From an uncultured Oscillospiraceae bacterium (GTDB lineage Bacteria > Bacillota_A > Clostridia > Oscillospirales > Oscillospiraceae), in assembly GCA_900754605.1 (NCBI GenBank), contig CAAEDK010000092.1:1-22309 (forward strand): a stretch of DNA of 22,309 bases, given 5' to 3'. Shown here piece by piece: positions 6,907 through 21,384 of the stretch; position 1 is the stretch's first letter, and every line of letters starts with the position of its first letter. A program made the translations under genes and the position numbers. The notes beneath the pieces were generated by a model. The model was not told where the DNA came from and did no database searches. It was given only the letters and a program-made list of their open reading frames with translations.

Positions 6907-7384
6907 TGTACGCAGCCATTCCCGTTTACTATCCGTCGCTGGAAGAAGCCGCCCGAAAGGATGAAACGGCTCTTTGGTGCGACAGCTACAACATCAACGT
7001 GAACTGCCGGAATTTCATTCAAGACAAGGCCATGACCGCCATGAACAGCCGGGAGCTGGATTCCTTCATCGGATGGTGCGGGTTTACGGCGTGGAGCGGG
7101 CAATCTATGTCCTCTCCCGCACCATCCAGTTTTCCGATTGGGATTCCCGTTTCGATCAGGCGGTGCTTGACCGGGCCGGACAGACCGATTTCCCGGACGC
7201 CCGGACTCCGAGGGATGAAAACCATGTTGACCCGACCACCCGATATGTCACGGAGCTTGATCCGTGCGCTGTAAACGCCATCTTTATGAAGCTGATGGAA
7301 TTGGAGGAAGAACAGGAAGCGACCACTCAAATGGAGAACGACGGCCAGAAAGAGCTTGATGAGGATATGGCGTTGGAACTGTGA
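6906..7384 (+). pseudogene. DUF3849-domain protein, frameshifted
   Basis: Residues 1-57 from ATG 6906 (IPVYYPSLEEAARKDE..., then NINVNCRNFIQDKAM) are the start of a DUF3849 domain. After about 7074-7082 the homology continues in a different frame: VRVYGVERAIYVLSRTIQF and SDWDSRF, then an acidic tail ending at TGA 7382-7384. Joining needs a -1 shift, as if one base were lost near 7077-7081. The unshifted frame ends at 7274 with a Pro/Ser/Arg-rich tail of no clear meaning. There is no usual slippery heptamer in the correct phase at the junction, so a mutation or an assembly error is likelier than programmed shifting. DUF3849 genes are common, uncharacterised cargo of Clostridia ICEs. Confidence 0.7.
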
Positions 7385-7392
7385 GGCTGCCG

Positions 7393-8814
7393 ATGGCGCA
7401 GATGACATTCCTTGACTTCTTTTCCGGCATCGGCGGTTTCCGCAAGGGCTTTGAGCTGTGCGGGATGCGCTGTGTGGGGCATTGTGAGATCGACAAGTAT
7501 GCCGACCGCAGTTACAGAGCCATTCATAATGTGAAGGAGGATGAATGGTATGCAGCCGACATCACAAAAGTCACCCCAGCAGAACTCCCCAGAGCAGACC
7601 TGTGGGCAGCGGGATTCCCGTGTCAGGATATTTCAGTCAGCGGCCGTCAGCGGGGGATTAACGGAGCAAGAAGCGGACTCTTTTTTACACTTGCTCAACT
7701 CGTCAAAGGCCAAAGTCCTGAAAATCGACCCACATGGATTGTCCTTGAAAATGTTAAGAATCTCCTGTCCATTCATGGAGGATGGGACTTTGCGGCCGTT
7801 CTCGATACGCTGGCCTCACTCGGCTACCATATCGAGTACGGACTTCTCAATACAAAGGATTTCGGCCCCCCTCAAAACAGAGAGCGGGTCTACCTTGTCG
7901 CTTGCCGACATCCTGGAGCCGGAGGTGGACCAAAAGTATTTCCTATCCCAGCGGGCTGTGGAAAAGCTCTTATCCAACTCATAGGCGGGATGCAGGGCCA
8001 GCGGGTGTACGACCCGTCCGGCATCAGCGTGACAATGGCGGCGCAGTCCGGCGGCTGGGGCGGAAAGACCGGACTGTATTGTGTAGGGTATAATCGGGAA
8101 AAAGGAATAGATAAGGAATTAAAGGTAGCCCATTGTCTTAATGCCAGTGATACTCGTGGAATCAATAGAAATCAGACACAAAATGCTGTCTTTGTGGACC
8201 TTTGTAATGGTAGTCCCAAGCTGACGGAATATGCCCGGTGCATTAAGGCCAAGTATAACAGCGGGATCACCAACCGGGGCGGCGACAATTCCGGCGTGTT
8301 CTACGGCTGCCGAGCTGTCGTTACCCCGGAACGGGAAGAAAAGCGGCAGAACGGGCGGCGGGTCAAGGAGTGCGGAGAACCGGCCTTCACCCTTACGACG
8401 CAGGATCGCCACGGCGTTGTCTTTCAGGACTGCGAAAAATGCCCTCACGGTATGCGCGTCCGGGAGGCCACGAAGCAGGGCTACGCGGTTGCCCGGTGCG
8501 GGGACAGCATCAACCTGGCGTTCCCGGAGAGCCGGACAAGGCGGGGCCGGATCGGAAAGGACGGCGCCGGTACGCTGGACACCTCCTGCAATCAGGGAAC
8601 GCCGTTTGTGGGATGCGGCCTGATCCGCAGGCTGACGCCCCGTGAGTGCTGGCGGCTGCAAGGCTTTAGCGATGAAATGTTTGACCGGGCGCAGGCGGTC
8701 AACAGCGATAATCAGCTCTACCGGCAGGCGGGAAACTCTGTGACCATTCAAGTGGTCTATGCCGTGGGCAGGCAGATTCTCGCCGCGCAGGAGGCGTTGG
8801 AACAGGGGGAGTAA
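7393..8814 (+). CDS. dcm: DNA (cytosine-5) methyltransferase
   Basis: The 473-aa enzyme transfers a methyl group from S-adenosylmethionine to cytosine C5. From ATG 7393: motif I DFFSGIGG (8-15), motif IV GFPCQDIS with catalytic Cys77, motif VI ENVKNLL (from 119), motif VIII QNRERVY (from 161), then a long target-recognition region, motif IX RRLTPRECWRLQGF and motif X QAGNSV (GNS about 447-449). All are intact, so it should be active. The recognition region has loosely repeated units (VTMAAQ, CLNASDTRGI, CIKAKYNSGI, FTLTTQDRHGV, GTLDTSCNQG). GTG 7381 is another start, overlapping the upstream stop; TGAGG at 7382-7386 favours 7393. No restriction nuclease is nearby, so it probably protects the element. 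Bases 7541-7984 also carry another open frame. Confidence 0.95.
   Translation: MAQMTFLDFFSGIGGFRKGFELCGMRCVGHCEIDKYADRSYRAIHNVKEDEWYAADITKVTPAELPRADLWAAGFPCQDISVSGRQRGINGARSGLFFTLAQLVKGQSPENRPTWIVLENVKNLLSIHGGWDFAAVLDTLASLGYHIEYGLLNTKDFGPPQNRERVYLVACRHPGAGGGPKVFPIPAGCGKALIQLIGGMQGQRVYDPSGISVTMAAQSGGWGGKTGLYCVGYNREKGIDKELKVAHCLNASDTRGINRNQTQNAVFVDLCNGSPKLTEYARCIKAKYNSGITNRGGDNSGVFYGCRAVVTPEREEKRQNGRRVKECGEPAFTLTTQDRHGVVFQDCEKCPHGMRVREATKQGYAVARCGDSINLAFPESRTRRGRIGKDGAGTLDTSCNQGTPFVGCGLIRRLTPRECWRLQGFSDEMFDRAQAVNSDNQLYRQAGNSVTIQVVYAVGRQILAAQEALEQGE
7534..7540 (+). promoter_or_regulatory. Ribosome binding site inside dcm, ahead of the overlapping frame
   Basis: AAGGAGG at 7534-7540 lies 9 nt before ATG 7550 and directly before ATG 7541, both in the alternative frame. 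A near-perfect site within a coding gene is unusual, though in the dcm frame it simply encodes Lys-Glu-Asp. Confidence 0.5.
7550..7984 (+). CDS. Candidate overlapping gene inside dcm (LADILE/KYFLS protein)
   Basis: A 144-aa frame (147 aa from ATG 7541) lies wholly inside the methyltransferase gene, one base out of phase, behind AAGGAGG. Its sequence is not random: SLKMLRI, MEDGTLRPFSIRWPHS, then LSLADILEPEVDQKYFLS and AVEKLL, a pattern I recall from proteins encoded near methyltransferases in phages and mobile elements. Third-position GC supports it: for 7921-7980 I count 5/20 codons ending G/C in the dcm frame but 13/20 in this frame, while dcm codons at 7993-8052 give 19/20. It could be an overprinted gene, or a relic of an older frame. 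Translation is unproven. Confidence 0.4.
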   Translation: MQPTSQKSPQQNSPEQTCGQRDSRVRIFQSAAVSGGLTEQEADSFLHLLNSSKAKVLKIDPHGLSLKMLRISCPFMEDGTLRPFSIRWPHSATISSTDFSIQRISAPLKTESGSTLSLADILEPEVDQKYFLSQRAVEKLLSNS

Positions 8815-8930: not shown

Positions 8931-9641
8931 CTGGAACAAGAGAAACTGAAAGAGAAGCTGGACGAAGAAATCCATAAGACGGCCAGACCGCTGGAGGAAC
9001 TGGCCCCCGATGATCCTTATTTTGCACAGCTTCAGGGGATGCTTGCCATCAAAAGCGAATTGGAGAACATCCCCCTGAGCGGTACGCAGCGGGATATGCT
9101 TCTGTCGATGGAGAATGTGCTGGAACAGGCGTGGGCTTTCCGAAATACGCCCGTCCCAGACCGCTGTATGAACCCGGAGAACATCAGCGAGGTGGTCTAC
9201 TACTTTCTTCAGGACAGGGGCGCCGAGTATCGGGCCAATCTGCTCTACGACCGGGCCAAGGCGGAATTTGACGCCCGCATGGAGGAAATCGCCGCTCTGC
9301 CGCCAAAAGAAATATTGAATCACGCTTATGAAAAGGTCATCAAGGAAGAATTTCTCGGAGAGTTGGAGCAAGGGCTGGATGAATGGGAAACCGACACCCT
9401 GCTGACCTATTCTCAGCCCCTTGCGGCCCTATATACGGAATGGATGGACAATGATTTTTCTTTTTGGGACAGCATCCGGGGAACGGTGGAGAAAACAGTA
9501 TCGAAACAGGCGGCGGATCTCCGCCGCTGCGCGTTCCATGTCGATGGGGAGCCGCCTGCGGAAATGAAGGACTTTTACGACCTTCATGGGGACGAACTGA
9601 GCGACACCGGACTGGAGCCTACCAGGGAGATTGAGCGGTGA
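8931..9641 (+). CDS. DUF3848-domain protein, probable CTG start
   Basis: This encodes 236 aa if started at CTG 8931, or 200 aa from ATG 9039. The extra 36 residues (EKLKEKLDEEIHKTARPLEEL...) read as a natural charged helix and are backed by AGGAGGTGG at 8917-8925. Residues about 110-190 (LPPKEILNHAYEKVIKEEFL, then a run with QPLAALYTEW and AADLRRC) match DUF3848, an uncharacterised domain common on Clostridia ICEs, often found beside DUF3849 as here. The N-terminal third is helical and unrecognised. Soluble and acidic. Its stop overlaps the prepilin peptidase start by 4 nt (GTGA), tying it to the pilus operon's transcript. Confidence 0.8.
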   Translation: MEQEKLKEKLDEEIHKTARPLEELAPDDPYFAQLQGMLAIKSELENIPLSGTQRDMLLSMENVLEQAWAFRNTPVPDRCMNPENISEVVYYFLQDRGAEYRANLLYDRAKAEFDARMEEIAALPPKEILNHAYEKVIKEEFLGELEQGLDEWETDTLLTYSQPLAALYTEWMDNDFSFWDSIRGTVEKTVSKQAADLRRCAFHVDGEPPAEMKDFYDLHGDELSDTGLEPTREIER

Positions 9642-10084
9642 CGCCGCTTATTGTCAAGGGGGCGTTGTTCGGCCTGCTGCTCCTGTCCGCCGCCGTGTGG
9701 GATATGCGAAGCCGGGAGATCCCAAACCTGATCCCGGCCCTGCTCCTGCTGTGCGGGCTGATCGGCTTCCGCCCTGCCGCTTCTGCGGCGGGGCTGTTTC
9801 TGGTCGGCGGCCCCTTTCTGCTGACGGCGGTCCTGATAAAACGGGACGGATTTGCCATCGGCGGCGGTGATGTGAAGCTGATGGGGGCCTGCGGGTTTGT
9901 TTTGGGCGTGTGGCCTGGGCTGATACAGACCGTTCTTTCCCTCTCGCTGGCGGTGCTGGCCGGGCTGGTGGAGTGCTGTTTGCAAAAACGGCCGCTGTCT
10001 ATGGTACGCCTGCCCTTGGCCCCCTTTTTCTGCTTTGGCGGCGTGTCCGCCTACTGGCTGACCGCATTTGCACTTCAAATCTGA
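9638..10084 (+). CDS. Prepilin peptidase (A24 family, TadV/CpaA-like)
   Basis: The 148-aa membrane aspartyl protease starts at GTG 9638, overlapping the upstream stop. The two catalytic aspartates are Asp22 (WDMRSREIPN) and Asp78 in the GGGD motif (IGGGDVKLMG). Five or six hydrophobic helices fill the rest. It lacks the N-terminal methylase domain of PilD, as is usual for Tad-type peptidases. It should cut the short basic leader from prepilins after Gly; likely substrates in this window are the products at 4837, 15489 and 15881. It opens the Tad gene run, followed 18 nt later by cpaB. Confidence 0.9.
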   Translation: MTPLIVKGALFGLLLLSAAVWDMRSREIPNLIPALLLLCGLIGFRPAASAAGLFLVGGPFLLTAVLIKRDGFAIGGGDVKLMGACGFVLGVWPGLIQTVLSLSLAVLAGLVECCLQKRPLSMVRLPLAPFFCFGGVSAYWLTAFALQI

Positions 10085-10102
10085 ACAAGTGGAGGTATCA
10101 AA

Positions 10103-10960
10103 TTGAACAAGAATATTTTTCGGAGCCGGACGGTCATCGGCGCGGTGTGCATCCTGCTGGCAGTCCTGGTCTGCTTTGGAATCACGCCGCTTTTCAACGA
10201 GGGACTGAAAGCCCAGACGGAGGCCGTCCGGGTAAAAGCCGAGGTGATTCCACGGGGGACATACATCACGGCGGACATGGTGGAGGTCTACACCAGAGGG
10301 GCCTCCGGCATGGAGGACAGTATCGCCACCTCGCTGGATGAGGTGGTGGGAAGATACACCTATGTGGAGCTGCGGAAAAATACCGATGTGAACACGGCGT
10401 GGCTGTCCTCTGAGCCATTGACGCAGTACGAGTACCTGACCCGACTGAACGGTTCCAAGGTAGCGATCTCCGTCACCATCCCCACCTTTGCCAAGGGCGG
10501 TTCCGGCAAGGTGGAGGCGGGCGATATTATCATGCTCTTTGCCACCGACAAGGACACCGGCGAAACCACCCAGCCCCCGGAGCTGAAATATGTGGAGGTC
10601 CTGGCCGCCACCCAGAGTTCCGGCGCGGACAAGGAATATCAGGCGCCGGTGGAAAATGAGGAAGAAGAAAACCCGGAGGAAACTCTGCCCGCCACCATCA
10701 CCCTGCTGGTGAACAGCGAACAGGCCCAGCTTTTAGCTCATTTGGAGGAATCCAACAGCCTCCACCTGGCCTTTGTCTACCGGGGCGCCCGTGCCAATGC
10801 CGAAAAGTTCCTGGCGGCGCAGGACGCCTTCTTTGCCGAACCGGAGGCGGAGGCCGGTGGGGAGAGCAGTCAGCCGGAGGCCCCTGTTGACGCTGCTGAC
10901 GGCGGGCAGTCCACAGAGGGCACGGAGGAACAGGAGGTGGAAACAACGGATGGCGAATAA
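10103..10960 (+). CDS. cpaB: CpaB/RcpC-like Flp pilus assembly protein
   Basis: The 285-aa product starts at TTG 10103, set by GGAGGT at 10091-10096. Residues about 10-31 are a membrane anchor or uncleaved signal. A SAF-type domain follows (VKAEVIPRGTYITADMVEV, DEVVGRYTYVELRKN, then DVNTAWLSS), as in CpaB/RcpC and flagellar FlgA-like proteins. The next domain has KVAISVTIPTFAKGGSGKVEAGDIIMLFA; the last 60 residues are a low-complexity Glu/Ser/Pro/Gly tail. In Gram-negatives CpaB works with the secretin; here there is no outer membrane and no secretin gene, so it may act at the wall. It overlaps the next gene by 11 nt. Confidence 0.85.
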   Translation: MNKNIFRSRTVIGAVCILLAVLVCFGITPLFNEGLKAQTEAVRVKAEVIPRGTYITADMVEVYTRGASGMEDSIATSLDEVVGRYTYVELRKNTDVNTAWLSSEPLTQYEYLTRLNGSKVAISVTIPTFAKGGSGKVEAGDIIMLFATDKDTGETTQPPELKYVEVLAATQSSGADKEYQAPVENEEEENPEETLPATITLLVNSEQAQLLAHLEESNSLHLAFVYRGARANAEKFLAAQDAFFAEPEAEAGGESSQPEAPVDAADGGQSTEGTEEQEVETTDGE

Positions 10961-11705
10961 GCAGAAACAGATGCTTGCTGTATGGGGCAGCCCCGGCGCT
11001 GGAAAGACGGTCACGGCGGTCAAGCTGGCGGCGGAGCTTGCCAAGCGGAAGAAAAATGTGGTGCTGGCGTTTACCGACCTTACCGCGCCCCCGCTTCCCG
11101 CTGTGGCGGCGGAGGGGAAGCTGCCGGAGGTGTCCGTGGGCGAACTGCTGTCCGCTCCCGGCATGACGCAGGAGCAGGTATTGAAAACCTGTGTCCCCTG
11201 TGAAAAGCACCCCTATATCAGCTTTCTGGGCTACAAGGCTGGGGAAAATGTGTTTACCTACGCAGAGTACAGCAAGGAAAAGGCGGTGGATATGCTGGTG
11301 CTTCTGCGGCATATCGCGGACTATGTGATCGTGGACTGTACCAGCGTCCTGACCGGGAATGTGCTTGCGACGGCGGCGCTGGAGGTGGCGGACGATGTGC
11401 TGCGGGTATGCGGATGCGATCTGAAAGCGATCTCCTATTTCGCGTCCTACCTTCCGCTGATTGAGGACCGGAAATTCAAGCCGGAGCAGCACATCCGGGT
11501 GCTGTCCAATACCCGGCCCTATCAGGGCGGAATGGAATACGAAAACTCATTTGGCGGGGTGAAGTACCGGCTGCCCTATCTTCCCATCGTGGAGGAACAG
11601 GCGGCCACGCTGAAGCTGCTGGAACCACTTGCCGGGAAAGAGGCAAAGAGCTATGAGCCGGTCATCGCTGCCATCGCCGCGGAGGTGTTCGGGGATGGCA
11701 AATAA
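10950..11705 (+). CDS. TadZ/CpaE-like ParA-family ATPase
   Basis: The 251-aa product starts at ATG 10950, set by CAGGAGGTGG at 10931-10940; a longer in-frame start at 10773 would run across the CpaB tail and is rejected. Residues 13-20 (GSPGAGKT) are the P-loop and the YVIVDCTSVL strand is the Walker B region of a MinD/ParA fold. It lacks the receiver domain present in CpaE of Caulobacter. In Tad systems this protein places the pilus machine at the cell pole or membrane, and its position between CpaB and CpaF is standard. It overlaps the CpaF start by 11 nt. Confidence 0.82.
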   Translation: MANKQKQMLAVWGSPGAGKTVTAVKLAAELAKRKKNVVLAFTDLTAPPLPAVAAEGKLPEVSVGELLSAPGMTQEQVLKTCVPCEKHPYISFLGYKAGENVFTYAEYSKEKAVDMLVLLRHIADYVIVDCTSVLTGNVLATAALEVADDVLRVCGCDLKAISYFASYLPLIEDRKFKPEQHIRVLSNTRPYQGGMEYENSFGGVKYRLPYLPIVEEQAATLKLLEPLAGKEAKSYEPVIAAIAAEVFGDGK

Positions 11706-13071
11706 CATCGGCCTTTTTTTCAACACCAGCAAAAACACGCGCTCATTCGCGGAGGTGCTGGCACAGGTGCAGGAGTACCTTGCCAGCAAGTATTCCACCC
11801 TGATAACCGACAACCCGGAGGAACAGCGCCAGCAGATCACCGCCTACATCGCCAAGTATCTCAATGATTACAGCCTGGGCGTAGAGGGCATGGATCACGA
11901 GGCCCTGATCGACAAGCTCTATACGGAAATGGCCGAGTTCTCCTTCCTGACTCCTTACCTCTTTGCCAGCGATGTGGAAGAGATCAACATCAACTCCTGG
12001 AAGGACACCAAGATCACCTATGCGGATGGGCGCGTGGTCCCCTCCAAGGAGCGGTTCCAAAGTCCTCAGCACGCCGTGGATGTGGTCCGCAGGCTGCTTC
12101 ATAAATCCGGGATGATCCTGGACAACAGCCAGCCGGGAGTGGTGGGCCATCTCTCCAATAAAATCCGTATCACGGTTCTGGGCAATCCGCTGACCGACAA
12201 GGACAAGGGCGTGGCGGCTTCCATCCGAATCGTAAACCCCAAAAAGCTGGGGCGGGATGATTTTGTCCGCTATGGGACGGCCACCGCCGAAATGCTGGAT
12301 TTCCTGGCGGCGGTGCTGCGGTTCGGCCTGTCTATTTGCGTCACCGGCTCCACCGGCAGCGGCAAGACCACGCTGATGAGCTGGATTCTCTCCACCATTC
12401 CCAATGAAAAAAGAATCTTCACCATCGAAAACGGGTGCCGAGAGTTTGATCTGGTGAAGGAGGATGCCGGGGGGAATGTCCTCAACAATGTAGTCCATAC
12501 CGTCACACGCTTTTCCGATGACCCCAAGCAGAACTACGATCAGGAGCGGCTTTTGGAGTTTGCCCTTACCTGCGACCCGGATGTGGTGTGCGTGGGCGAG
12601 ATGAAGTCGGCGGAAGCGTTTGCGGCGCAGGAGGCGGCCCGCACCGGCCACGCGGTCATTACCACCACCCACGCCAATAGCTGCAAGGCCACCTACTACC
12701 GCATGGTGACGCTGTGTACCCAGAAATACGACATGGGCGACAAGACCCTGTATAACCTGGTGACGGAGGCATTTCCCATTGTCCTCTTCGTGAAGAAGCT
12801 GGAGGACAACAGCCGCAGGGTAATGGAGATTACCGAGTGTGAGATTTTGGAGGACGGCTCCCGGCAGCTCCACACCCTCTACCGCTACCATGTATCGGAA
12901 ACCGCTGTCGAGGATGGCAAGGTCAAGGTGCATGGCGAGTTTCAAAAGGTGTCCCCAATCTCGGCCAGCCTGCAAAAGCGGCTGCTTGAGAATGGGATGC
13001 CGCCCCGCCTGCTGGAGCAGATCGCCGGTGGGCGGATGGATATAGACGATGGGAAGGAGGAAACCGCTTGA
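11695..13071 (+). CDS. cpaF: CpaF/TadA secretion ATPase
   Basis: The 458-aa hexameric motor of the Tad/Flp pilus belongs to the T2SS/T4P/VirB11 superfamily. It starts at ATG 11695 with GGAGGTG at 11681-11687; an upstream TTG at 11629 lies inside tadZ and is rejected. Features: a helical N-terminal domain, VEEININS and a central beta-rich domain with Arg fingers, Walker A GSTGSGKT at 218-225, an Asp box, Walker B about 296-303 (DVVCVGEM), and a His box (TGHAVITTTHANS). It is full length. VirB11 relatives also serve T4SS, so it might power either machine, but its CpaB/TadZ/TadB neighbours point to the pilus. Confidence 0.93.
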   Translation: MANNIGLFFNTSKNTRSFAEVLAQVQEYLASKYSTLITDNPEEQRQQITAYIAKYLNDYSLGVEGMDHEALIDKLYTEMAEFSFLTPYLFASDVEEININSWKDTKITYADGRVVPSKERFQSPQHAVDVVRRLLHKSGMILDNSQPGVVGHLSNKIRITVLGNPLTDKDKGVAASIRIVNPKKLGRDDFVRYGTATAEMLDFLAAVLRFGLSICVTGSTGSGKTTLMSWILSTIPNEKRIFTIENGCREFDLVKEDAGGNVLNNVVHTVTRFSDDPKQNYDQERLLEFALTCDPDVVCVGEMKSAEAFAAQEAARTGHAVITTTHANSCKATYYRMVTLCTQKYDMGDKTLYNLVTEAFPIVLFVKKLEDNSRRVMEITECEILEDGSRQLHTLYRYHVSETAVEDGKVKVHGEFQKVSPISASLQKRLLENGMPPRLLEQIAGGRMDIDDGKEETA

Positions 13072-20439: not shown

Positions 20440-21384
20440 ATGAAGCACACCCGGCAGGATTTGAACATCATGCAGGGTTGGAGCCTCGAAAAAAAGATCA
20501 AAGTATCGCAGATGAAAATATTGGAATGGTACAGGGCGTACAACGGGCAGGTCTTTACCAGCTTTTCGGGCGGTAAGGATTCCACGGTACTCCTTGATTT
20601 GGCACGGCAGGTCTGCCCGGATATTCCTGCCGTGTATGTTGACACAGGGTTGGAATACCCGGAACTGCGCGATTTTGTAAAAACGAAAGACAATGTGATT
20701 TGGCTTCGCCCGCGCTATCCGTTTACTCAGATCATTGAGAAATACGGCTATCCGGTTATTTCTAAGGAAGTATCCGATGTTATAAACGGCGCACGGAAGG
20801 GCCAGCCTTACCGTCTGGCCCGCCTGAACGGTGAATTGCTGGATAAGGACGGAAAGAAGTCGATTTACAACTGCGAGAAGTATAAATATCTTCTGGACGC
20901 CCCCTTTGCGGTTTCGGCCCGGTGCTGTTACCACATGAAAAAGGCCCCGCTGAACAAATTTGAACGGCAGTCCGGGCGGCATCCCATTACGGGAGTGCTG
21001 GCCTGTGAGAGCAAGCTGCGGGAACAGTCATACCTCAAATTCGGCTGCAACGGCTATGAACGCAAACGCCCTCTCAGCCAGCCCCTTGCGTTCTGGCGGG
21101 AGGAAGATATTTTGCGCTACCTGAAAATGACCGGCATCCCCTATGCCCCCATCTATGGGGATATTGTGGAGGTCAAAAAGAGGAACGGCGCCCTGACTCT
21201 GAAAACCACCGGCGTTTCCAGATCAGGGTGTATGTATTGTATGTACGGCGTTCATCTGGAGCATGAGCCGAACCGTTTTCAGCTCATGGAGAAAACCCAT
21301 CCCCGGCAGTACCACTACTGCATCCATGAGCTGGGGCTGGGCGCCGTGCTGGATTATATTGGCGTGCCGTACTCGTGCCGCTGA
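20440..21384 (+). CDS. PAPS/APS-reductase-like ATP-pyrophosphatase-fold protein
   Basis: The 314-aa product starts at ATG 20440 (ATG 20470 is an option), 2 nt after the upstream stop. SGGKDST at residues 43-49 is the PP-loop; VDTGLEYPEL follows. RCCYHMKKAPLN holds Cys162-Cys163, and Cys264-x-x-Cys267 lies near the C-terminus: together the Cys-Cys...Cys-x-x-Cys order that binds a 4Fe-4S cluster in APS-type reductases. Relatives on phages and ICEs are not sulfate-assimilation enzymes but probably modify nucleic acids; DndC of the phosphorothioate system has the same core. No dnd partners are visible. It sits between two T4SS genes as inserted cargo. Chemistry is inferred. Confidence 0.85.
   Translation: MKHTRQDLNIMQGWSLEKKIKVSQMKILEWYRAYNGQVFTSFSGGKDSTVLLDLARQVCPDIPAVYVDTGLEYPELRDFVKTKDNVIWLRPRYPFTQIIEKYGYPVISKEVSDVINGARKGQPYRLARLNGELLDKDGKKSIYNCEKYKYLLDAPFAVSARCCYHMKKAPLNKFERQSGRHPITGVLACESKLREQSYLKFGCNGYERKRPLSQPLAFWREEDILRYLKMTGIPYAPIYGDIVEVKKRNGALTLKTTGVSRSGCMYCMYGVHLEHEPNRFQLMEKTHPRQYHYCIHELGLGAVLDYIGVPYSCR

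What the first reader, a model, noticed from the sequence alone, without database searches (positions are those of the whole stretch)
7541..7984. Two reading frames look real inside the cytosine methyltransferase
The dcm frame carries catalytic motifs IV, VI and VIII here. The frame one base away is open for 147 codons, has AAGGAGG ahead of it, and encodes a recognisable pattern (SLKMLRI, EDGTLRPFSIRWPHS, LADILEPEVDQKYFLS). Hand counts of G/C-ending codons: dcm frame 15/20 at 7402-7461, 11/20 at 7561-7620, 5/20 at 7921-7980, 19/20 at 7993-8052; the alternative frame has 13/20 at 7922-7981. The drop coincides with the second frame. Parts of the two patterns are simple frame shifts of each other (ENVKN and LKMLR; QNRERVY and KTESGST; KVFPI and KYFLS), so proteins I recall from phages with the second pattern may have arisen by overprinting of methyltransferase genes. 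A nested protein could be a methyltransferase partner, an anti-defence factor, or a relic of an older frame.
Basis: partly seen in the sequence, partly recalled or inferred. Interest (0 to 1): 0.82.

Follow-up and report, generated by a model that had tools for sequence, protein, structure and literature searches.

The report
Hidden second gene inside DNA methyltransferase
The same stretch of DNA is read in two frames, giving a cytosine methyltransferase and a second, separately conserved protein that is probably its partner subunit; the arrangement recurs in methyltransferase genes of phages and mobile elements of very different bacteria and is seldom annotated.

Summary
Confirmed, and broader than stated. 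The +1 frame of the window's C5 cytosine methyltransferase (dcm, 7381-8814) holds a nested gene (7541-7984, probable start 7550). In 63 dcm homologues the core of that frame has 0 stops where synonymous shuffling predicts 264, and fourfold-site divergence there is 3- to 10-fold lower than downstream, rising at the nested stop. Sets seeded by Vibrio, Mycobacterium and Pseudomonas phage genes agree: the core is lower in 123 of 125 disjoint pairs over four sets. Open nested frames also lie in P1 dmt and SpSL1. Of 18 scorable dcm genes from sampled Bacillota genomes, 17 carry stops there. The nested protein ends in a 'DILE..KYFLS' module that some ordinary enzymes have in their main chain; here it is in the nested frame (245 of 263), never in the main chain (0 of 263). 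Best reading: second subunit of a split methyltransferase, as in M.EcoHK31I; that role is inferred. Prior art: M.EcoHK31I and a phage MM1 record naming alpha and beta subunits. New, as far as searched: breadth, two-frame selection, displaced module.

The parts
7381..8814 (+). C5 cytosine DNA methyltransferase, main frame (alpha), 477 aa
7541..7984 (+). Nested gene in the +1 frame (beta-like protein), 147 codons from first ATG, 144 aa from ATG 7550
   Evidence: ORF; 0 stops vs 263.8 expected in core of 63 homologues; synonymous constraint
7534..7540 (+). Shine-Dalgarno AAGGAGG of the nested gene
   Evidence: sequence; +1 start codon with SD of 5+ nt at dcm residues 55-60 in 40 of 63 homologues vs 22.0 expected under synonymous shuffling
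7550..7552 (+). Probable start codon of the nested gene, 9 nt after the SD
   Evidence: 144-aa database ORF calls such as P0001 begin here
7681..7981 (+). Core of the nested gene: part under strongest two-frame constraint (dcm residues 101-200)
   Evidence: 4-fold divergence 0.043/0.093/0.19 vs 0.34-0.61 downstream in three clades
7892..7981 (+). C-terminal module TLSLADILEPEVDQKYFLSQRAVEKLLSNS, read in the nested frame
   Evidence: module HMM: nested frame 245 of 263 at 10+ bits, main frame 0 of 263; main frame of some ordinary dcms
7618..7626 (+). dcm motif IV (PCQ), main frame, overlapped by the nested gene
   Evidence: translation, conserved columns; motif names recalled
7747..7755 (+). 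dcm motif VI (ENV), main frame, overlapped
   Evidence: motif name recalled
7873..7890 (+). dcm motif VIII (QNRERV), main frame, overlapped
   Evidence: motif name recalled
8623..8667 (+). dcm motif IX (IRRLTPRECWRLQGF), in the main frame
   Evidence: motif name recalled; so the main chain keeps motif IX, unlike the large subunit of M.EcoHK31I as described in PMC3404938

Best explanation
The nested frame is a real gene under selection, hence almost surely translated. Its product is most likely the second (beta) subunit of a split C5 cytosine methyltransferase whose large subunit is the surrounding dcm chain. Some ordinary C5 methyltransferases carry a 'DILE..V..KYYLS' segment in their own chain, between motif VIII and the target recognition domain. 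In this lineage that segment is read one base out of frame, as the C-terminus of the nested protein, and is missing from the main chain. I infer that the small protein folds onto the large one at this hinge and is needed for, or tunes, methylation, as shown for M.EcoHK31I (recalled). Nesting guarantees that the two parts are inherited together and expressed from one message, the small one from its own start (SD AAGGAGG, ATG 7550). Shown here: two-frame selection, displacement of the module, an enriched start plus SD in two of four sets, occurrence inside C5 methyltransferase genes. Inferred: translation, heterodimer, hinge contact, effect on activity.
For: Openness: 0 stops vs 263.8 expected in 63 homologues, while the +2 frame has 566 vs 479.0. 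Selection: nested-frame dNN/dNS 0.18, 0.20, 0.34 in the core vs 0.62, 0.63, 0.84 downstream; +2 frame 3.2, 3.8, 1.55. Synonymous suppression in 123 of 125 disjoint pairs over four sets. Start and SD: 40 of 63 vs 22.0 (Firmicutes set), 32 of 67 vs 12.6 (Mycobacterium-seeded set). Module: nested frame 245/263, main frame 0/263; main frame in some ordinary dcms. Linkage: nested-type ORFs that I placed are inside C5 methyltransferase genes. Precedents: two-polypeptide M.EcoHK31I (passages of PMC3404938); GenBank DQ113772 labels MM1 orf13/orf14 alpha and beta subunit. SpSL1 dcm, which holds the nested ORF, goes with an active m5C enzyme (102 of 113 sites methylated; passages of PMC6755750).
Against: No biochemical or proteomic datum for any of these nested proteins was available. 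The main chain keeps motif IX (166 of 263 by a strict pattern) and models as an M.HhaI-like enzyme, so it might work alone. In SpSL1 both frames were intact, so its activity does not show that beta is needed. Only 3 of 17 scored ordinary dcms show the module at 10+ bits in the main chain, and the module is short (about 30 residues; 9.8-18.5 bits in ordinary enzymes). The nested model is weak (mean pLDDT 68.6, pTM 0.41) with no significant fold match. The start is not uniformly marked: in the Vibrio- and Pseudomonas-seeded sets the strongest SD bins lie elsewhere. The N-terminal part gives dNN/dNS 0.96 and 0.75 in two clades.
Confidence: 0.6

Rival explanations
1. The nested gene makes an independent effector that rides with the methyltransferase: for example an inhibitor of enzymes that cut m5C DNA (type IV, McrBC-like), another anti-defence protein, or a protein that docks on the host replication clamp. 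Nesting then serves only co-inheritance.
For: Both genes travel in phages, plasmids and ICEs. 16 of 262 nested ORFs carry a Q[LM]xL[FL] motif in the first 57 codons of the open frame, vs 1 of 262 after one synonymous shuffle per gene and 0 of 262 in the +2 frame; several of the 16 are close relatives; the motif resembles the beta-clamp peptide (recalled).
Against: The C-terminal module resembles a piece of methyltransferase, which an unrelated effector would not need. No free-standing copy was found. The clamp-like motif is in a minority and not in the window. No PADLOC match for the two nested proteins tried.
Confidence: 0.25
2. The nested frame is reached by frameshifting from dcm rather than by its own start, giving a dcm N-terminus fused to the nested C-terminus.
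For: Database proteins of about 196 aa join the dcm N-terminus to the nested frame, several at a T6 run. N-terminal nested codons are less constrained in some clades. L006 has 4 stops in the N-terminal part only.
Against: Fusion points are scattered along the gene, as random indels or assembly errors would give. Start plus SD are enriched at the nested N-terminus in two of four sets.
Confidence: 0.08
3. The constraint is on RNA or DNA signals or is a by-product of dcm conservation, and no second protein matters.
For: One frame shift of a conserved protein always looks somewhat conserved; ordinary dcms give weak +1 hits to the nested profile. In the window's own clade 4-fold divergence is low upstream of the nested gene too (0.052 in residues 1-50, 9 genes).
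Against: The ordinary hits mostly hold stops and end before the module. First-position changes (often nested-silent) stay high while third-position changes fall; dNN/dNS points to the nested frame, not the +2 frame. The streptococcal and third clades show no upstream dip (0.31, 0.57).
Confidence: 0.02

Closest known systems
M.EcoHK31I (and M.EaeI), two-polypeptide C5 methyltransferase
   Same: C5 methyltransferase made of two polypeptides (passages of PMC3404938); beta read from another frame within the alpha gene, and M.EaeI as a relative (both recalled).
   Different: There motif IX is said to lie in the small polypeptide only; here the main chain keeps motif IX. No sequence of M.EcoHK31I was available for comparison.
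Phage MM1 orf13/orf14 (GenBank DQ113772; NC_003050 MM1p14/p15) and PHROG 16143
   Same: Same arrangement and family: nested ORF open in the +1 frame.
   Different: Seen here only as database labels ('C5 methyltransferase beta subunit', 'DNA methyltransferase'); no test or evolutionary analysis found in the searches made.
M.AquI, split C5 methyltransferase
   Same: Two polypeptides form one enzyme.
   Different: There the chain is cut into two successive parts within the variable region; here the large chain is continuous.
ShiLan-domain hidden HNH endonuclease in a phage methylase (PMC11855218)
   Same: Out-of-frame gene inside a phage DNA methylase gene (abstract and discussion section).
   Different: That is an inserted homing endonuclease; here the catalytic motifs themselves are overprinted.

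Membership tests
C5 cytosine DNA methyltransferase (PF00145), main chain | PF00145 domain with PCQ, ENV and motif VIII | tested here: met
   E=1.2e-63; conserved columns
Overlapping (dual-coding) gene | Purifying selection in both frames | tested here: met
M.EcoHK31I-type two-polypeptide methyltransferase | Small subunit gene nested in the large one in another frame | tested here: met
   (that M.EcoHK31I itself is nested is recalled)
M.EcoHK31I-type two-polypeptide methyltransferase | Motif IX only in the small polypeptide | tested here: not met
   motif IX in the window's main chain and in 166 of 263 main chains by a strict pattern; so not filed as a member
M.EcoHK31I-type two-polypeptide methyltransferase | Both polypeptides needed for methylation | not testable with these tools
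   needs enzymology
M.EcoHK31I-type two-polypeptide methyltransferase | Sequence homology of the small polypeptides | not tested
   no M.EcoHK31I sequence at hand; original paper not held
PHROG 16143 | Profile match | tested here: met
   26 of 26 nested proteins of A1 at E<=0.1; window 9.3e-07; 5 of 7 named-phage nested proteins at E<=0.01
Beta-clamp-binding protein | N-terminal QL[SD]LF-like motif (recalled) | tested here: not met
   absent from the window's protein; Q[LM][STDNEG]L[FL] in 16 of 262 relatives

The most novel reading that the evidence does not exclude
One ancient overprinting event, or a few, turned the hinge segment of a phage C5 methyltransferase into a separate nested subunit. 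Since then a superfamily of mobile-element methyltransferases, from gut ICEs and streptococcal phages to mycobacteriophages, vibriophages and P1, has worked as a heterodimer encoded twice in one DNA stretch; in some branches the nested subunit has gained a peptide that tethers the enzyme to the replication clamp, as PCNA does for DNMT1 (recalled).
Probability: 0.4. Interest if true: 0.87.

Novelty: new variant of a known kind. Interest (0 to 1): 0.77.

Why it matters
[quoted passage not shown] This one seems to have been kept from Bacillota elements to P1 and mycobacteriophages, sits over the catalytic motifs of a well-studied enzyme, and can be tested in one experiment. If it is a required subunit, phage cytosine methyltransferases expressed from recoded genes could lack their partner, and many phage and P1-like plasmid records miss a gene. 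It is also a natural model for how a protein segment moves from one frame to another while staying under selection.

Tried and rejected
Spurious ORF: rejected, with dcm genes of sampled genomes as negative controls.

Pfam, PDB-sequence and PADLOC searches with nested proteins gave nothing usable (one of 26 members reached E=6e-4 to a Cpf1 domain, judged chance). Foldseek: PDB best E 1.1; viral library best E 0.012, an unnamed 178-aa protein.

PHROG 1008 as a free-standing family: 3 of 249 genomes gave matches; the two I could read (L171, L173) also lay in the +1 frame of a C5 methyltransferase; the third (G208) had a main frame with stops.

Frameshift fusion as the normal product: set aside because fusion points scatter.

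Clamp binding as the general function: motif in only 16 of 262.

[quoted passage not shown] four held papers mention M.EcoHK31I (passages seen). A review of frameshifting had no DNA methylase case in the part held (passages). Most subscription papers are not held, so this does not show absence from print.

Structure of the main chain: confirms an M.HhaI-like fold, but residues 205-335, in the recognition region, have pLDDT under 50, so whether the module's site is vacant could not be judged.

Full report
WHAT IS THERE. The window carries a C5 cytosine methyltransferase gene, 7381-8814 (+), 477 codons, PF00145 E=1.2e-63. One base ahead, 7541-7984 is open for 147 codons. AAGGAGG at 7534-7540 touches the ATG at 7541, so the next in-frame ATG at 7550 (spacing 9) is the better start. 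On this sequence alone the ORF is weak evidence: with dcm amino acids and codon usage fixed, the same interval is open in 0.7% of 20,000 shuffles, and some open run of 149 or more codons in the other two frames appears in 10%.

COMPARISON. I collected dcm homologues by similarity of the main protein plus one locus found by a nested protein and annotated phage and plasmid regions found by nested proteins. Of 171 sequences 168 gave a dcm ORF (3 were skipped), 126 distinct, 63 representatives at 85% identity. Over dcm residues 101-195 the +1 frame has 0 stops in 63 genes against 263.8 expected under synonymous shuffling; over residues 56-100 it has 6 against 68.6; the +2 frame, as control, has 566 against 479.0 and 162 against 189.4. 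The nested frame most often ends near dcm residue 200-201, in some genes at 212-249.

SELECTION. Fourfold-degenerate divergence in dcm residues 101-200 is 0.043 (38 streptococcal-type genes), 0.093 (9 genes of the window's clade) and 0.19 (16 genes of a third clade), against 0.37-0.47, 0.34-0.49 and 0.55-0.61 downstream; it jumps back at residue 201, the nested stop. Third-to-first-position ratios are 0.95, 1.08 and 1.28 inside and 2.3-5.2 downstream, as expected when dcm third positions are nested-frame second positions. Not everything fits: in the window's own clade residues 1-50, upstream of the nested gene, are also low (0.052, 612 sites), whereas the other two clades give 0.31 and 0.57 there. 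Simple dNN/dNS for the nested frame is 0.18 (20 of the 38 streptococcal genes, drawn at random), 0.20 and 0.34 in the core, 0.62, 0.63 and 0.84 downstream, and 3.2, 3.8 and 1.55 for the +2 frame in the core; in the N-terminal part (54-100) it is 0.96, 0.31 and 0.75, so the protein-level signal is firm for the core only. In 16 diverse homologues residues 171-190 of the nested frame are better conserved (0.56-0.60) than dcm itself (0.39-0.40).

BREADTH. tblastn with nested proteins found matches in 140, 212, 130 and 210 phage records and in 62, 534 and 532 plasmid records; the sets overlap and the listings are capped. In seven named phages read in detail (P1, Mycobacterium Dove, Vibrio K459, Pseudomonas TC7, Caulobacter DMCA, Streptococcus Javan102, Faecalibacterium Toutatis) the match lies in the +1 frame of the annotated methyltransferase; six have an open nested frame of 135-221 codons, P1 dmt 165; in Toutatis the nested ORF is broken and its end is joined to the dcm N-terminus. 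Four hits not annotated as methyltransferases were checked and all four lie in the +1 frame of a frame that reads as a C5 methyltransferase. Three further sets seeded by the Vibrio, Mycobacterium and Pseudomonas genes (60, 67 and 75 non-redundant members, all but the seeds IMG/VR contigs without host names) show the same trough of synonymous change over the nested interval. Taking disjoint pairs to avoid counting shared history twice, the core is less diverged than the comparison region in 47/47, 22/22, 30/31 and 24/25 pairs, 123 of 125 in all (comparison region downstream, but residues 6-55 for the Mycobacterium-seeded set, whose reference chain is short). P1 itself was not in these sets; for P1 I have openness and similarity only.

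NEGATIVE CONTROLS. Among 30 PF00145 loci fetched from 119 sampled Bacillota genomes (the best-scoring places, capped), motif VIII could be placed by my pattern in 18; 17 have 2-9 stops in the +1 frame between motif VI and just past motif VIII and no nested module, and one (L462, of the nested type) has none and a 57-bit module. The 12 others were not scored. Weak +1 hits of the nested profile to other dcms mostly carry stops and end before the module. So the +1 shadow of a dcm does not stay open by itself.

THE DISPLACED MODULE. The nested proteins end in L..IL......KY.LS (invariant or near-invariant L, I, L, K, Y, L, S). In some ordinary dcms a similar segment is in the main frame after motif VIII: L180 (L203 is the same gene), L185, L186, L200, L204 (9.8-18.5 bits), and 3 of the 17 ordinary loci (L454, L467, L468; L468 is the same gene as L185); the other 14 show none at 10 bits. 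In the nested-gene dcms the module is in the nested frame at 10 or more bits in 245 of 263 (62/62, 59/60, 50/67, 74/74) and in the main frame in 0 of 263. The simplest history is a pair of compensating frame changes around this hinge, after which the old frame was kept as the end of a new gene. That history is inference.

EXPRESSION. A +1 start codon with an SD match of 5 or more nt falls at dcm residues 55-60 in 40 of 63 Firmicutes representatives (22.0 expected) and at 61-66 in 32 of 67 of the Mycobacterium-seeded set (12.6 expected; other bins of that set also exceed expectation). In the other two sets the strongest SD bins lie elsewhere, but an ATG is near-universal near the nested N-terminus: 59 of 60 (43.1 expected) and 70 of 75 (42.4 expected); internal bins exceed expectation by similar amounts. 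This favours separate initiation without proving it.

FUNCTION. Best reading: beta subunit of a split methyltransferase. For: the module resembles a methyltransferase part; the nested-type ORFs I placed are inside C5 methyltransferases; M.EcoHK31I is a known two-polypeptide C5 enzyme (passages of PMC3404938; that its small gene is nested in the large one is recalled from Lee, Kam and Shaw 1995, not held; the title of that paper, seen in the reference list, says two proteins are required in vitro); a GenBank record of phage MM1 calls the same pair C5 methyltransferase alpha and beta subunits. Against filing it as M.EcoHK31I-type: there motif IX is said to lie in the small chain only, here it is in the main chain (166 of 263 by a strict pattern; only 2 of 67 in the Mycobacterium-seeded set, whose reference is a short chain followed by a second methyltransferase CDS). 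SpSL1, whose dcm holds an open nested frame, makes an active m5C enzyme (passages of PMC6755750), which does not tell whether beta is needed.

A SIDE LEAD. 16 of 262 nested ORFs have a Q[LM][STDNEG]L[FL] motif, all in the first 57 codons of the open frame and 8 starting in the first 10, against 1 after one shuffle per gene and 0 in the +2 frame; several of the 16 are close relatives. It resembles the bacterial sliding-clamp motif (recalled) and appears at different places of the dcm gene in different branches. The window's protein lacks it.

SETTING. The window looks like a conjugative element: TraG/VirD4-type coupling protein, TrbL, a weak TrbC-like pilin match, DUF3849/3848/3846 proteins and a Tad-like set (prepilin peptidase, RcpC, secretion ATPase). 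The closest dcm found (95% identity) is in Eisenbergiella porci.

NOVELTY. Two-polypeptide C5 methyltransferases with a nested small gene are a known kind (one or two enzymes, recalled). PHROGs holds nested ORFs as family 16143 labelled DNA methyltransferase, and MM1 and S. thermophilus phage P0092 annotate them. I found no report of two-frame selection, of the breadth or of the displaced module (ten searches, listed under Tried and rejected).

Noticed in passing
window 8101-8190: Within the dcm recognition region GC3 falls to 7/30 next to windows of 20-21/30, suggesting an AT-rich segment of other origin in the main frame.
   Followed up: no
database proteins P0034, P0035, P0036, P0039, P0096, P0098: Several dcm proteins run into the nested frame at the T6 run (SGLFF); P0096 stands for 43 sequences and P0098 for 15. 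Could be recurrent slippage, real pseudogenes or assembly errors.
   Followed up: partly
L206 (Escherichia phage P1) 2698-3195: P1 dmt contains an open, unannotated 165-codon +1 frame of this family; 534 plasmid records, 450 of them Escherichia, hold a relative and look P1-like from the listed annotations.
   Followed up: partly
L033 2432-2866, L205 1375-1872, L207 2231-2710, L209 2273-2722, L485 1444-1872: Nested proteins with a QMTLF, QMSLF, QLDLF, QLTLL or QMNLF motif near the N-terminus, resembling sliding-clamp peptides.
   Followed up: partly
L207 2059-3177: Mycobacterium phage Dove has two successive methyltransferase CDS (gp107, gp108), with the nested ORF inside the first: perhaps a three-part enzyme.
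   Followed up: no
L212 2293-2898: In Faecalibacterium phage FP_Toutatis the annotated methyltransferase N-terminus runs into the nested frame and ends with the KYFLS-type module.
   Followed up: no
window 9638-13071: The conjugative element carries Tad-pilus-like genes: prepilin peptidase, RcpC/CpaB and secretion ATPase.
   Followed up: no
window 20440-21384: PAPS-reductase-family protein, possibly DNA phosphorothioation-like; neighbours not examined.
   Followed up: no
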